Assembly (NCBI RefSeq): GCF_017254845.1
Contig: NZ_JAFKCU010000001.1
Span: forward strand, 703,048 to 767,047
Direction: 5' to 3'
Length of the DNA: 64,000 nucleotides
Origin: Algoriphagus pacificus
GTDB taxonomy: Bacteria; Bacteroidota; Bacteroidia; Cytophagales; Cyclobacteriaceae
Below are positions 26,574-32,372 of the stretch, piece after piece. The position numbers were made by a program, and so were the translations under genes. A model generated the notes under the pieces. The model was given only the letters and a program-made list of their open reading frames with translations, made no database searches and was not told where the DNA came from. Position 1 is the stretch's first letter; each line of letters opens with the position of its first letter.

Positions 26574-26632
26574 GGTTGGATTTTTGGGTTTAGGATATTT
26601 AAGTTAATTAAAAAATCAACAGCTTCCTCAAG

Positions 26633-27034
26633 CTATCCACATTGTCCACCTTTTAATAGTATTTATATATTATTTAAAAAAAGAATCTATTACAGTTATT
26701 AGCTCTGTGGATTTGTGGACAAGCCTTACTTTTTGGTTTCTCCACTTTATCCTAAACGTTATAGATTACTTATCCTTTACTTATACCATGTTTTTCCACA
26801 TCTAACTTGTTGAAAAAGAGAGGTATGTTTTTTTATCCACGAATAGCAGGTTTTTTCAGCTTTTTCAACTGTTGGTAAGGAGGCTGTGGATTACTTGATT
26901 GTCTTCTGTGGATAGTTTTTCACTTATCCCCAAATTCTGCTTTTTAGATTTTATCAGATTTGAGAAAGGGGATAACATGATTTTTTTCCTGATTTTATCA
27001 ACCTTTTTCCACAGGTTTTCCTCAGTTATCAACA
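26633..27034. other. candidate chromosomal replication origin (oriC) with DnaA-box cluster
   Basis: The only gene-free stretch above 300 bases (26574-27021). Nine 9-mers match the DnaA box TTATCCACA at 8 of 9 positions. Plus strand: 26633, 26792, 26833, 26924, 27005 and 27026. Minus strand: 26714, 26885 and 26907. At least four more match at 7 of 9. A very AT-rich segment lies at 26651-26700. Boxes in both orientations plus an unwinding-type stretch, mnmG 2.6 kb away and parS sites 4.5 kb away all point to oriC. No perfect box is present and dnaA is not in the window. The last box lies within the final codons of the gene ending at 27022. Confidence 0.85.
26651..26700. other. putative DNA unwinding element of oriC
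   Basis: 50 bases with 5 G or C by hand count, rich in TTTA/TATT steps, lying between the first boxes and the remaining cluster. Confidence 0.6.
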
Positions 27035-28713
27035 GGAGTAATTTCGCTGTTTTGCAATCCCGTTTGAGGTGTTGCTTTGATCAAAACGTCCTCAACTGTC
27101 CAACCTGCCTTGACAATTATATCCTGAGTATTGGTCTTCGGGTCAATAAAGTAAAACACTCTTTCTGCGTGCCTTTTCTCTTTGAAATTGGCTGGATCCC
27201 AGCGTCTATTTCCATTTGAATCCTCTATAACCCGAATTTTATAGGTTGCGGGTTCAATCAATGTAAGTGTGAATGCATTTCCCTCAGAAAGGTAGAGTTC
27301 TTTGTTTATTTGTGATTTTGTATCAATCAATTGGATAATGAAAGGACCTTTTGCTCCAGTGATTGTTCCAGATAATTTATCTGCCAAAGTTTCTCTTTTC
27401 AATTTTCGATAGTTTGCTGAAAGTACTGCTTTATTATATTGATTTTCTATGTCCAAAAAAGTGGAATCAGCTGCTTTTATTGTGAAAATCTCCTTAGAAA
27501 GGGTATCTGGAATGGTCAATATGATCTGTAGCTTATCTCTTTTTAAAGAATCTTCCATTCGAACCATTTCAGGATTTATCTGAATGAACGAAGCTGTATC
27601 ATAGGAGACAAATAGAGAATCATAATTGATATCCATCACTGGTTTGTTGAAGCTTAATTCTATCAATAAATCTTGGTAGAAGTTTTTCCCCGAGTTTGCT
27701 GTGAAAGTCAGATCTTCTTTTCGTCTTTCTGATTCAGGAAATTTGGCATAGATAGCTGTATCAACTTTAAAGCTTAAAGAATCCTGTGCTTTTATCTCAA
27801 ATAGTAGACTATCTGCTTTTGTCTCTTTAGAATAAAGAGTTATTCGCTTATCACCTACAGTATAGAATATGTCTTGGCCCAACAATTCATTTTTCAGCTC
27901 GATATTTAATGGATCTTTGTTGAAAACCAAATCGTAATTTGAACCTGCTGCCGAAGATCTTGTAAGTTTCAATTCTGTTAGATCTGCTTTGGACAAGTTA
28001 AAATTTACTCCATCTATATTTTGAGTGATGCTTATTGTATCTAAGATGAAGTCATAAATCTCACTTTTATACTCACCTTTTAGTGTGTTGTTTTGATCAT
28101 TCCAGGCATAGGCTCGGTAATCACCGGCCTTGATATTACTTATCATAAACTTGCCTAAGGAATCAGCTTGAGAGAGATAGTAAGGTTGGGCAGTAAATAA
28201 ATCCGTGGTATCATTTTTTTCATAGAGACCTACTATCACATTCTCGTATTCAAAACCTCTTTCCGGAAAATAATTATTAACTGTGCCGCTGAATGTGAGA
28301 CTGTCAATAGAATCACCAGTGGAGAAAACTAGTTTGAGGTTTTCTGTTGGATTTCCTTCCGATAAGTCTTCTACTGATTTTTGGAAGTTGAAAACATAAG
28401 TTGTGTTATCTTCTAATTCCTGATTTAATTCGATTTTTATCGTGTTTTTCAGAGAAGTCACAATCAATTCATCCTTATCCAATTTTGGAGTGATGATGAT
28501 GTTTTTATTAGGATTATCAAGTTTGATATATTCATCAAATACGATGAGAATTTCCTCTGGATTTTGATTTAAGCTTTGATCTGCTGGGTACATTTCCAAA
28601 ACCACAGGTGGATCTTCATCTCTTGGGCCACCCATAGGGGTACTTTGTTTAGCACATGCGTATAGCAAGATTAGAGCAAGGAGGAAAATTCCTATGTTAA
28701 CTAAGTTTTTCAC
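27022..28713 (-). CDS. Ig-like (SbsA/Big_5) domain lipoprotein
   Basis: A 563-residue predicted lipoprotein (LLYAC, Cys20, then AKQSTPMGGPRDEDPP). The N-terminal Ig-like domain (about 35-135) matches the SbsA/Big_5 type common in Bacteroidota (ILIVFDEYIKLDNPNKNIIITP to TYVFNFQKSVEDL). A carboxypeptidase-like fold follows, then beta-rich repeats with conserved NGNRRWDPANF near the C-terminus. No enzymatic motif is visible; a structural or envelope role is inferred. It starts with GTG (28713), overlapping the TGA of the methyltransferase gene upstream (GTGA). Its final codons carry the last DnaA box of the putative origin. Confidence 0.88.
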   Translation of the reverse strand: MKNLVNIGIFLLALILLYACAKQSTPMGGPRDEDPPVVLEMYPADQSLNQNPEEILIVFDEYIKLDNPNKNIIITPKLDKDELIVTSLKNTIKIELNQELEDNTTYVFNFQKSVEDLSEGNPTENLKLVFSTGDSIDSLTFSGTVNNYFPERGFEYENVIVGLYEKNDTTDLFTAQPYYLSQADSLGKFMISNIKAGDYRAYAWNDQNNTLKGEYKSEIYDFILDTISITQNIDGVNFNLSKADLTELKLTRSSAAGSNYDLVFNKDPLNIELKNELLGQDIFYTVGDKRITLYSKETKADSLLFEIKAQDSLSFKVDTAIYAKFPESERRKEDLTFTANSGKNFYQDLLIELSFNKPVMDINYDSLFVSYDTASFIQINPEMVRMEDSLKRDKLQIILTIPDTLSKEIFTIKAADSTFLDIENQYNKAVLSANYRKLKRETLADKLSGTITGAKGPFIIQLIDTKSQINKELYLSEGNAFTLTLIEPATYKIRVIEDSNGNRRWDPANFKEKRHAERVFYFIDPKTNTQDIIVKAGWTVEDVLIKATPQTGLQNSEITPVDN

Positions 28714-29609: not shown

Positions 29610-31475
29610 TTATCTTCCTAAATATACTGTAAGGATGGAAAGGTCTGCAGGAGATACACCTGATATTCTAGAGGCTTGGCCTAGTGTTTCAGGTTTGATC
29701 TTATTCAGTTTCTGTTTTCCTTCATTGGATAAAGCAGGTATGGTCAGATAATCAAATTTCAATGGAATCTTATAGTTTTCCATGTTGCTTAATTTATCGA
29801 CCATTTGTTGTTCCTTTTCTATGTAGCTATCATATTTAATCTGGACTTCAGCCTGATCCCTGACTTCTTTAGAAAAACCTTCAAGGAATGATTTCATATC
29901 TGGATCTAGATCCATGAGTTGATCAATTCCTATCTGGGGTCTTTTCAATAATTTTTCTGCTGCAATTTTTTCCTTTATTTCAGCAGTTTGAATGGTTTCA
30001 AGACCTTCATTGATTTGATCAGGAGCTAGTTTTTTCTGTTTAAGATCATTGATTAATCTGGCAGTTTCTTTCTTTTTGTTTAGCATTTTATTCAAACGCT
30101 CTTGACTTGCCAAATTTATATCATATCCTAGCTGAGTTAATCTCAAATCTGCGTTGTCCTGTCTTAATAGCAATCTAAACTCAGCTCTGGAAGTAAACAT
30201 TCTATAAGGTTCCTCAGTGCCTTTATTAATCAAATCGTCTACCAATACTCCTATGTATGCATCTGATCTTTTTAGAAGGAATGGATCTTTTTCTTGAACT
30301 TTTAAGCTTGCATTAATTCCTGCAATTAGACCTTGAGAAGCTGCTTCTTCGTATCCGGTTGTCCCATTGATTTGTCCTGCGAAATACAAGTTTTCAATCA
30401 ATTGGGTTTCTAGAGTTAATTTTAGCTGTGTAGGTGGAAAGAAATCATATTCAATGGCATATCCAGGCCTAAACATTTTGGCATTCTCAAAACCCGGAAT
30501 CTTTTGTATTGCTTTGTATTGAACATCTTCAGGAAGAGAAGTTGAAAATCCGTTGACATAAATTTCTACTGTATCCCAGCCTTCCGGTTCTACAAATATT
30601 TGATGTCTTTCTCTCTCTGCGAATCTATTGATCTTGTCCTCTATTGAAGGGCAGTATCGTGGTCCAAGACCTTGAATTCGTCCATTGAACATTGGAGAGC
30701 GATCAAATCCCTCTTCTAATGTTTCATGGACTTCTTTATTTGTATAGGTTATCCAGCAAGTTCTTTGCTCTTTGATTGGGCTTGTTTCATCAGAATAACT
30801 GAATTTCTCAGGGTTTTCGTCTCCGTACTGTACTTCCATTTTGGAGTAATCCAGACTTCTGCCATCCACTCTTGGTGGAGTCCCCGTTTTCATTCTTCCT
30901 GATTCGAAACCTAATGAAACCAGTTGTTCAGTAATTCCTTTAGCTGCTGATTCACCTGTTCTACCTCCTCCAAACTGTTTTTCACCAATATGGATGATTC
31001 CATTTAAGAATGTTCCATTGGTTAGAACTACACTTTCTGACTCTATTTCTATCCCAATACTTGTTCTGACGCCTTTGATTCTACCATCCTTTACTAAAAT
31101 TCCGGTTATCATTTCTTGCCAGAAATCTACATTTGGAGTTTGTTCTAGAGCTAATCTCCATTCCTCCGCAAATCTCATTCTATCATTTTGTGACCTTGGA
31201 GACCACATAGCAGGACCTTTTGATCTATTGAGCATCCTGAATTGGATCATAGATTTATCAGAAATTATCCCTGACATCCCTCCAAGAGCATCTATTTCAC
31301 GAACTATTTGCCCTTTTGCTACCCCACCCATTGCAGGATTGCATGACATCTGGGCAATAGTATTCATGTTCATAGTACAAAGAAGAACCTTTGAACCCAT
31401 TTTTGCGGCAGCATGTGCGGCTTCACAACCGGCATGTCCAGCCCCTACTACTATGACATCATATTTTGGAAACAT
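29610..31475 (-). CDS. mnmG: tRNA uridine-5-carboxymethylaminomethyl modification enzyme MnmG (GidA)
   Basis: With MnmE, MnmG forms the cmnm5 group on wobble uridine 34 of several tRNAs, using FAD and NADH. The 621-residue protein shows the N-terminal FAD motif VVGAGHAGCEAA, the SCNPAMGGVAKGQIVREIDALGG signature region, GTFLNGIIHIGE, the KTGTPPRVDG motif, the NGTTGYEEAA(S)QGLIAG segment and the C-terminal YLGR ending. It is a common neighbour of oriC across bacteria, which supports the origin call. The 67-base gap upstream holds the two parS sites. Confidence 0.98.
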   Translation of the reverse strand: MFPKYDVIVVGAGHAGCEAAHAAAKMGSKVLLCTMNMNTIAQMSCNPAMGGVAKGQIVREIDALGGMSGIISDKSMIQFRMLNRSKGPAMWSPRSQNDRMRFAEEWRLALEQTPNVDFWQEMITGILVKDGRIKGVRTSIGIEIESESVVLTNGTFLNGIIHIGEKQFGGGRTGESAAKGITEQLVSLGFESGRMKTGTPPRVDGRSLDYSKMEVQYGDENPEKFSYSDETSPIKEQRTCWITYTNKEVHETLEEGFDRSPMFNGRIQGLGPRYCPSIEDKINRFAERERHQIFVEPEGWDTVEIYVNGFSTSLPEDVQYKAIQKIPGFENAKMFRPGYAIEYDFFPPTQLKLTLETQLIENLYFAGQINGTTGYEEAASQGLIAGINASLKVQEKDPFLLKRSDAYIGVLVDDLINKGTEEPYRMFTSRAEFRLLLRQDNADLRLTQLGYDINLASQERLNKMLNKKKETARLINDLKQKKLAPDQINEGLETIQTAEIKEKIAAEKLLKRPQIGIDQLMDLDPDMKSFLEGFSKEVRDQAEVQIKYDSYIEKEQQMVDKLSNMENYKIPLKFDYLTIPALSNEGKQKLNKIKPETLGQASRISGVSPADLSILTVYLGR

Positions 31476-31490
31476 GATTCTATTTATTAC

Positions 31491-31506
31491 TGTTCCACGT
31501 GAAACA
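31491..31506 (+). other. parS site 1 (ParB-binding)
   Basis: TGTTCCACGTGAAACA matches the conserved chromosomal parS sequence TGTTNCACGTGAAACA at every position. It lies 16 bases upstream of the mnmG ATG. Confidence 0.93.
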
Positions 31507-31526
31507 GTTCGTGTTAATTGCTGAAC

Positions 31527-31542
31527 TGTTTCACGTGGAACA
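31527..31542 (-). other. parS site 2 (ParB-binding), inverted
   Basis: TGTTTCACGTGGAACA, the exact reverse complement of site 1. The two sites with their flanks form a perfect 20-base inverted repeat (31491-31510 / 31523-31542) with a 12-base spacer, ending at the ybeY stop. Confidence 0.93.
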
Positions 31543-31968
31543 CTAGGTTGATTTAAATAAATTTATTGCGAACTCCTCTTTGGCTCGCATGATTTTAGCT
31601 TCAGACTTCTTCTTGTCTTTGTATCCCATCAAGTGGAATAAACCATGACTGATGACTCTACTTAATTCGTCTTCAATAGAAGTTTGATGCTTTTCAGAAT
31701 TTTCCTTTACGCGATCAATACTTATAAAGATGTCTCCTTCAATTTCCGAATCTCCTTCAGAGTTATCAAAAGTGATGATATCTGTGTAAGTATGATGGTT
31801 TAGGTATTCGACATTGATTGAGTACAAATACTCGTCACTGCAGAAAATATAATTCAAATCTACGATTTTGAAGCTTTCTGTTTCTGCTATTGATTTTAAC
31901 CATTTCTTCCTTGCTAGTTTCTTGCTGAGTTGAAATGGAGTTTCTTCTTGAAAGAAATTAATTGCCAT
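31543..31968 (-). CDS. ybeY: endoribonuclease YbeY
   Basis: A 141-residue zinc-dependent RNase of 16S rRNA 3'-end maturation and ribosome quality control. The metal motif is HGLFHLMGYKD (H108, H112, D118). Here the third ligand is Asp in place of the His of E. coli, a known variant in Bacteroidota. The TDIITFDNSE segment (62-71) is also typical. It is separated by two bases from the RsbW-like kinase gene upstream and by the parS sites from mnmG downstream, so the sites lie in the transcribed or 3' region of this operon. Confidence 0.95.
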   Translation of the reverse strand: MAINFFQEETPFQLSKKLARKKWLKSIAETESFKIVDLNYIFCSDEYLYSINVEYLNHHTYTDIITFDNSEGDSEIEGDIFISIDRVKENSEKHQTSIEDELSRVISHGLFHLMGYKDKKKSEAKIMRAKEEFAINLFKST

Positions 31969-31970
31969 GA

Positions 31971-32372
31971 TTAATTCATGTAGAAAGATAAAATGGTCTT
32001 TCTACCATCTTCTTCAAATTTTACCTCGTCACTCAAATGCTTGATCAGGAAAATGCCTCTACCTCCTGTTTTTTCAATATTCTCAGGTGCCGTTGGATCT
32101 TTCAATTCATTGTAGTCAAATCCTGGACCTTCGTCTTGAATAATGAATCTTAGAAGTTGATCTTCCATGAATAATTCCAAATGGACCAGTTTATTCTTGT
32201 CATGTTGGTTTCCATGAATAATGGCATTGCTGATACATTCTGTAACCGAAATCATGATATTTCCATAGATATCATCATTGATTTCGAAGTTTTCCCGAGC
32301 ATTGTCGATAAAACTTTCGATTATTTTAATATTCTCAATTAGAGAAGGAATGGAAATTTTAATTGATTTCAT
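31971..32372 (-). CDS. RsbW-like ATP-binding protein (HATPase, anti-sigma factor kinase-like)
   Basis: A 133-residue stand-alone GHKL ATPase domain. Seen: the N-box VTECISNAIIHGNQHDKNK, the G1 box DEGPGFD, and GGRGIFLIKHLSDEV. Known relatives (RsbW, SpoIIAB) bind and phosphorylate anti-anti-sigma factors. No partner sigma factor or antagonist is next to it, so its target is not known. It precedes ybeY with a two-base gap and follows exonuclease III after 36 bases. Confidence 0.9.
   Translation of the reverse strand: MKSIKISIPSLIENIKIIESFIDNARENFEINDDIYGNIMISVTECISNAIIHGNQHDKNKLVHLELFMEDQLLRFIIQDEGPGFDYNELKDPTAPENIEKTGGRGIFLIKHLSDEVKFEEDGRKTILSFYMN

What the first reader, a model, noticed from the sequence alone, without database searches (positions are those of the whole stretch)
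31491..31542. Two perfect parS sites in inverted orientation between mnmG and ybeY
TGTTCCACGTGAAACA and its exact complement match the ParB site at all positions; together with flanks they make a 20-base perfect inverted repeat with a 12-base spacer. A face-to-face parS pair in a 67-base gap is unusual, since parS copies are usually scattered singly, and may favour ParB clustering or SMC loading here.
Basis: partly seen in the sequence, partly recalled or inferred. Interest (0 to 1): 0.85.

Follow-up and report, generated by a model that had tools for sequence, protein, structure and literature searches.

The report
Twin chromosomal centromere sites near origin
The two mirror-image sites are the only close matches to the ParB docking site in this genome, a bacterial "centromere" beside the probable replication origin; paired sites are the rule in this genus, so the pair itself is ordinary, but the distances between such paired sites in several groups of bacteria may follow the twist of the DNA helix.

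Summary
Confirmed: two perfect parS sites, 31491-31506 and 31527-31542, lie between mnmG and ybeY and are the only ones in the 5.28 Mb genome at up to one mismatch. A dense DnaA-box cluster lies about 4.5 kb away and the GC skew switches nearby: the origin-proximal centromere of a parABS system, probably in an Algoriphagus.

A close pair is not unusual: the same pattern occurs in 68 of 73 genomes of the genus (51 of 51 at least 90% complete) and in many phyla. The inversion is not conserved: parS is a palindrome, direct arrangements outnumber inverted 14 to 7, and only this locus of 67 has arms extended inward by 4 bases. SMC loading stays plausible, untested.

Possibly new: spacings of neighbouring parS favour about 26, 36-37 and 46-47 bp, half-integral helical turns. 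The phase was fitted in one order, then tested at fixed phase: other Bacteroidota p 0.057, mixed bacteria 0.015, Pseudomonadota 0.035 and, written down beforehand, a Bacillota phylum 0.003, or 0.012 with stricter pruning. The effect is modest. Also, parAB lies about 1 Mb from parS in three closed relatives.

The parts
31491..31506 (+). parS site 1, TGTTCCACGTGAAACA (nearer mnmG)
   Evidence: 0 mismatches
31527..31542 (+). parS site 2, TGTTTCACGTGGAACA (nearer ybeY)
   Evidence: 0 mismatches
31491..31542 (.). twin-parS centromere; 36 bp start to start (3.43 turns at 10.5 bp)
   Evidence: only sites of the assembly at up to 1 mismatch; pair in 68 of 73 genomes of the genus
29610..31475 (-). mnmG (gidA), flanks the pair
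   Evidence: TIGR00136, 859 bits; match on one side of the pair in 50 of 50 loci
31543..31968 (-). ybeY, flanks the pair
   Evidence: TIGR00043, 97 bits; match on the other side in 50 of 50 loci, in L071 running into the first site
26574..27040 (.). probable oriC: nine DnaA boxes with one mismatch each (26633-27034), all but the last in an intergenic stretch, about 4.5 kb from parS
   Evidence: 9 boxes in 500 bp; 200 base-permuted copies of a 20-kb stretch gave at most 3; the skew switch of the window, at about 33-36 kb, lies 6-9 kb off

Best explanation
The pair is the centromere of a Bacteroidota chromosome, as far as close matches to the site go the whole of it. A ParB dimer binds each palindrome, closes around DNA with CTP and slides off, so two neighbouring loading points feed one ParB cluster near the origin; ParA moves the cluster and ParB recruits SMC there. 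Two sites give redundancy and faster loading. Their distance tends to half-integral helical turns, so that neighbouring dimers sit on opposite faces of the helix. Shown here: the sites, their being the only close matches, conservation of pair and place, origin position, presence of parA, parB and smc genes. Inferred from the family: binding, clamp loading, segregation, SMC loading, redundancy. Suggested by statistics only: the helical phasing. The confidence given is for the centromere, not for the phasing.
For: Perfect and unique sites. Pair in 68 of 73 genomes of the genus; mnmG and ybeY on either side in 50 of 50 loci, the ones that handed out; in 11 chosen 20-kb regions, two of them from other orders of the class, mnmG is beside the sites in 11 and ybeY found in 8. 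Origin: DnaA-box cluster about 4.5 kb away here and in G009, G021, G037 and G063, about 5 kb in G316 and 5.6 kb in G133; in the single-contig relative G009 the GC skew turns from negative to positive at 4.375-4.405 Mb, parS being at 4.395 Mb, and back between 2.0 and 2.25 Mb. ParB has ParB_N, HTH_ParB and ParB_C domains and lies beside parA; SMC 1054 bits over a cut-off of 567. Phasing.
Against: parAB is not beside parS: in the closed relatives G009, G021, G037 parB lies 0.97-1.18 Mb away. The best-scoring NCBIfam model for ParB is nucleoid occlusion protein Noc (239.5 bits, under its cut-off of 315); the generic ParB model is over its cut-off. ScpA/ScpB were not searched. No binding data. A DnaA-box cluster of six or more is found in only 7 of 11 regions. 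A close pair is not general: 70 of 291 genomes of the order have one at 20-50 bp and 22 of 291 at 51-81 bp. Phasing: with distinct genus-spacing combinations the rest of Bacteroidota has 11 of 43 in the predicted trough 40-43 bp and the mixed set 16 of 100; stricter pruning gives p 0.068 in Pseudomonadota, and counting each distinct spacing once gives p 0.18 and 0.10; the genus itself peaks at 0.31 turn rather than 0.47.
Confidence: 0.93

Rival explanations
1. The perfect inverted repeat works as a hairpin in the ybeY-mnmG transcript or as cruciform DNA (terminator, mRNA processing or stability), and the parS match is a side effect.
For: The 85-nt stretch folds at -35.3 kcal/mol as RNA, z -10.7; both genes lie on the same strand with the hairpin between them. 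Fully complementary free positions are commoner than expected in related loci (27 of 67, 16.3 expected).
Against: No T run follows the stem on either strand. The terminator scan does not list it, but that scan only allows loops of 3-8 bases and so could not have listed it. Any two parS can pair, so the fold follows from the motif. Inner-arm extension is 0 in 50 of 67 loci and 4 only here; direct arrangements exceed inverted ones 14 to 7; identical site types are in similar excess (34 of 67, about 17 expected from the margins), which fits likeness of the two copies rather than pairing.
Confidence: 0.04
2. The second site is a passive duplicate: one parS is enough, and pairs persist by duplication without selection on number or distance.
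For: In Pseudomonas aeruginosa one origin-near parS suffices (PMC4368675, abstract and passages), likewise in Corynebacterium glutamicum for growth and morphology (PMC7083940, passages). Site types are often identical. Some arrays are plain tandem duplications, e.g. G1032.
Against: 51 of 51 genomes of the genus at least 90% complete keep two sites although the DNA between them differs; spacings are not smoothly spread.
Confidence: 0.2
3. The apparent helical phasing is an artefact of shared descent and of the range of distances searched.
For: Related species share spacings; no genus labels were given for the Pseudomonadota and Bacillota sets; stricter pruning weakens the result and one count per distinct spacing is not significant; the trough at 40-43 bp is well filled in the deduplicated rest of Bacteroidota, 11 of 43.
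Against: A similar best phase (0.46-0.51 turn) appears in four later sets that did not set it, one with the test written down before the search; 0 of 32 Pseudomonadota spacings are 40-43 bp against 9 at 36-39 and 7 at 44-47.
Confidence: 0.4

Closest known systems
Chromosomal parS sites of the Spo0J/ParB type (survey of Livny et al. 2007: seen only as a reference in other papers, not held)
   Same: 16-bp consensus met at all positions; near the origin; parA and parB genes present
   Different: Two sites only, in one 67-base gap; parAB about 1 Mb away in closed relatives
Close parS pairs in C. glutamicum (parS5/6 and parS9/10 less than 100 bp apart; PMC7083940, passages) and C. [quoted passage not shown]
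   Same: Two parS within a short distance near the origin
   Different: C. glutamicum has ten sites in 35 kb and C. crescentus a multi-peaked ParB profile by those passages; here the pair is all that was found at up to one mismatch
parS clusters at the origin of gut Bacteroidetes such as Bacteroides caecimuris (Hi-C; PMC10197239, passages)
   Same: Clustered parS at the origin
   Different: That paper found no homologue of known condensins in its two Bacteroidetes; here a full-length SMC is present

Membership tests
Chromosomal parS (Spo0J/ParB type) | 16-bp consensus TGTTNCACGTGNAACA | tested here: met
   two sites, 0 mismatches
Chromosomal parS (Spo0J/ParB type) | origin-proximal position | tested here: met
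   DnaA-box cluster at about 4.5 kb, GC-skew switch within about 5 kb; skew switch at the pair in G009. oriC itself is a prediction.
Chromosomal parS (Spo0J/ParB type) | genome encodes a ParB of three domains with a ParA | tested here: met
   one ParB by TIGR00180; Pfam ParB_N, HTH_ParB, ParB_C; parA adjacent; top NCBIfam score is to Noc but under its cut-off
Chromosomal parS (Spo0J/ParB type) | conserved in relatives | tested here: met
   68 of 73 of the genus; 51 of 51 at least 90% complete
Chromosomal parS (Spo0J/ParB type) | ParB binds it and segregation depends on it | not testable with these tools
   needs ChIP-seq and mutants
Common chromosomal parABS layout (recalled, not defining) | parAB close to parS and oriC | tested here: not met
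   parB 0.97-1.18 Mb from parS in 3 of 3 closed relatives of the genus looked at; here parAB lies on another contig
Intrinsic terminator | stem-loop followed by a T run | tested here: not met
   strong stem but no T run after it on either strand; the scan allows loops of 3-8 bases only and could not list it
SMC loading site | SMC-ScpAB present and loaded at parS | tested here: inconclusive
   SMC present; ScpAB not searched; loading not testable

The most novel reading that the evidence does not exclude
Neighbouring parS sites across bacteria are preferentially placed half-integral helical turns apart (about 26, 36-37, 46-47 bp), so that adjacent ParB dimers sit on opposite faces of the DNA. 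The geometry between neighbouring loading dimers would then be under selection, an element that the passages I read on clamp loading do not mention. In Bacteroidota the twin site has stayed beside mnmG although parAB lies far away.
Probability: 0.55. Interest if true: 0.68.

Novelty: new member of a known kind. Interest (0 to 1): 0.5.

Why it matters
It gives a natural minimal centromere: two sites and no other close match in the assembly, with the genes of the binding protein about 1 Mb away in closed relatives, in a genus where 51 of 51 genomes at least 90% complete keep the pair. That makes the question 'why two sites, and why at this distance?' testable with small edits. If the helical phasing holds, it constrains how ParB clamps load next to each other, which the passages I read on sliding clamps do not address.

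Tried and rejected
Hairpin or terminator role: rejected on the comparison of 67 loci and the lack of a T run. Inverted orientation as a feature: rejected. 'Unusual pair': rejected. Dismissing the periodicity as chance: not done after the fixed-phase tests, but it stays a hypothesis because pruning weakens it. Literature: six searches touching parS spacing, helical phase or face, close pairs or mnmG and three on Bacteroidetes, Flavobacterium or Cytophaga showed, in the titles and abstract beginnings listed, no report of helical phasing of chromosomal parS or of parS at mnmG in Bacteroidota. Several lists were capped (15 of 81 papers, 15 of 23, 15 of 17, 20 of 36, 10 of 51), the library lacks most subscription journals, and Livny et al. 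2007 is not held. Papers seen as passages only: PMC7022226, PMC10197239, PMC4368675, PMC13342612, PMC8299390, PMC10387095, PMC7083940; in PMC6399470 none of my terms occurred. No paper was read whole.

Rows dropped or missing: the list was cut (G189 has a match that is not listed) and so was that (G404 and G412 not listed). In the order-level set one non-adjacent distance (83, G083) was left out. From the mixed set I dropped 13 loci titled as Bacteroidota, judged from the 80 titles shown; the other 40 of 120 loci showed no titles and may hold some; 100 of the remaining 107 gave a spacing between full cores. Pseudomonadota: 3 near-copies dropped from 35 values, 2 more in the strict version; Bacillota: repeats inside G1070 and G1032 collapsed to give 46 values, 4 dropped in the strict version. 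The sets are not wholly independent: G352 and G353 also gave loci of the mixed set, and the spacing of G352 was known before the written prediction. Adding spacings over 60 bp lowers R at 10.5 bp from 0.41 to 0.35 in the order-level set.

Full report
Observation. The two sites are exactly as described. They are the only matches to TGTTNCACGTGNAACA at up to one mismatch in the 5.28 Mb assembly, where about 0.02 perfect sites would be expected by composition. Chance is excluded. Because the motif is a palindrome except at its two free positions, 'inverted orientation' refers only to those positions (C/A in one, T/G in the other).

Organism. The pair and the DNA between its sites printed for genome G003 (same genus as the window) are found letter for letter in locus L127 at the same coordinates, 7216 on; L127 is titled Algoriphagus sp.. 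The genus of the window is therefore most likely Algoriphagus.

Place. The pair lies in the 67-base gap between mnmG and ybeY, both on the minus strand (names). About 4.5 kb away, at 26633-27034, nine DnaA boxes with one mismatch each stand within 500 bp; base-permuted copies of a 20-kb stretch gave at most three in 200 trials. GC skew in the window turns from negative to positive at about 33-36 kb, 2-5 kb from the pair and 6-9 kb from the boxes. In the single-contig relative G009, 23 sampled 20-kb stretches show the skew turning from negative to positive at 4.375-4.405 Mb, where its parS pair lies, and back between 2.0 and 2.25 Mb. So this is the origin region; oriC itself is a prediction.

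Conservation. A pair of sites 20-50 bp apart was found in 68 of 73 genomes of the genus, 51 of 51 among those at least 90% complete and at most 5% contaminated; the five without one are 67-85% complete. In 50 of 50 loci handed out (L033-L082: the genus, own locus included, other genera of the family, families f5 and f10) mnmG and ybeY match on either side of the pair; in L071 the ybeY match runs into the first site, and in L070 mnmG starts about 0.6 kb away. Of the 31 earlier loci around single perfect sites (two of them from the own genome) all 31 have mnmG and 30 have ybeY, and 30 have a second site at up to one mismatch. In the order, 70 of 291 genomes have a pair at 20-50 bp and 22 of 291 at 51-81 bp; in the phylum 50 of 296. 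In 11 chosen 20-kb regions, two of them from other orders of the class, parS lies beside mnmG in 11 and ybeY is found in 8; a DnaA-box cluster of six or more is found in 7 of 11. One region (L279) holds eight cores, seven of them between mnmG and ybeY, so the number of sites grows in some lineages.

Is the pair unusual? No. Close pairs are also in print for C. glutamicum (PMC7083940, passages) and C. crescentus (PMC10387095, passages).

Is the inversion meaningful? Not by this evidence. In 67 distinct loci, own included, where both sites are asymmetric, direct arrangements number 14 (TG-TG 10, CA-CA 4) and inverted 7; complementarity beyond the 16-mers is zero on the inner side in 50 of 67, and the own locus, with four bases, is the only one of its kind. 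The strong predicted hairpin follows from the motif, and no T run follows it. A result in the other direction: fully complementary free positions are commoner than expected (27 of 67, 16.3 expected), but so are identical site types (34 of 67, about 17 expected from the margins). The loci are from related species, so these counts are not independent events.

Machinery. The genome has one ParB match by TIGR00180, with ParB_N, HTH_ParB and dimerisation domains and a parA directly beside it; its highest NCBIfam score is to the Noc model, but under that model's cut-off. A full-length SMC is present; ScpA and ScpB were not searched. In the closed relatives G009, G021 and G037 parB lies 1.12, 1.18 and 0.97 Mb from parS. 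From recalled knowledge, parAB, gidA (mnmG) and parS often lie together near the origin; here parS is beside mnmG and parAB is elsewhere.

Spacing. Outside the genus, order-level spacings (85 values; 74 distinct genus-spacing combinations) pile up at 25, 36-39, 44-49 and 53-58 with few between; Rayleigh R at 10.5 bp is 0.35 (0.41 for spacings up to 60) and a smoothed resampling null gives p about 1.5e-4, phase 4.90 bp. This set fixed the phase. At fixed period and phase: rest of Bacteroidota, 43 distinct combinations, p 0.057 (all 70 values p 1e-4); mixed bacteria with titled Bacteroidota dropped, 100 loci, p 0.015, 0.011-0.031 over smoothing widths; Pseudomonadota, 32 values, p 0.035. Before the search of the Lachnospiraceae phylum I wrote the test down; the result was p 0.0028 with 46 values, best phase 4.79. 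Pooled Pseudomonadota and Bacillota put the preferred phase at 0.47 turn, bootstrap 0.39-0.56, i.e. half-integral turns. Against it: with stricter removal of look-alikes the pooled p is 0.0036, Bacillota 0.012, Pseudomonadota 0.068, and counting each distinct spacing only once is not significant, p 0.18 and 0.10. The predicted trough of 40-43 bp holds 0 of 32 in Pseudomonadota and 4 of 46 in Bacillota, but 16 of 100 in the mixed set and 11 of 43 distinct combinations in the rest of Bacteroidota. The period is not resolved better than about 10-11 bp. The genus itself (70 values) peaks at 46 with minor groups at 33-34 and 24 and a phase of 0.31 turn, a little off; the window's own 36 bp is 3.43 turns. 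I hold the phasing as slightly more likely than not, and not proven.

How it works, most likely. Two ParB dimers bind the two palindromes near the origin; with CTP they close, slide away and free the sites for more; the cluster is moved by ParA and recruits SMC. The steps after the sites themselves are taken from what is known of the family (for instance PMC8299390, passages) and are not shown here; the same passages say that Bacillus ParB did not condense DNA carrying 1, 2 or 4 parS in vitro. Opposite-face placement would keep two bound dimers out of each other's way or present them to each other across the helix; which of these, if either, is open.

Verdict.

Noticed in passing
G009, G021, G037 (closed relatives); window genome parAB on contig C32 (L032:1237-2963): parB lies about 1 Mb (15-23% of the chromosome) from parS and the origin, in G063 (best of three ParB matches) about 3.1 Mb, unlike the common layout.
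   Followed up: partly
L279:7669-10169 (G519): Eight parS cores, seven between mnmG and ybeY, the last five 37-49 bp apart: an expanded centromere at the same place in another order.
   Followed up: partly
G733:C99:41241-41296, G887:C1:60151-60206, G978:C23:44765-44820: A terminator-like inverted repeat with a T run sits between two parS 50 bp apart in Pseudomonadota genomes.
   Followed up: no
families f11 and f13: No f13 genome and only three f11 genomes of that sample show a close pair, although f13 genomes G071 and G088 have one perfect site each.
   Followed up: no
G000:C23:459617-463135: Full-length SMC in this genome, while PMC10197239 (passages) reports no known condensin homologue in two gut Bacteroidetes.
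   Followed up: no
window 31971-32372 (-): Small RsbW-like protein gene (HATPase_c_2; below NCBIfam cut-offs) directly upstream of ybeY.
   Followed up: no
window 30994-31524 (+): A 176-aa ORF antisense to mnmG runs into the parS pair; probably spurious.
   Followed up: no
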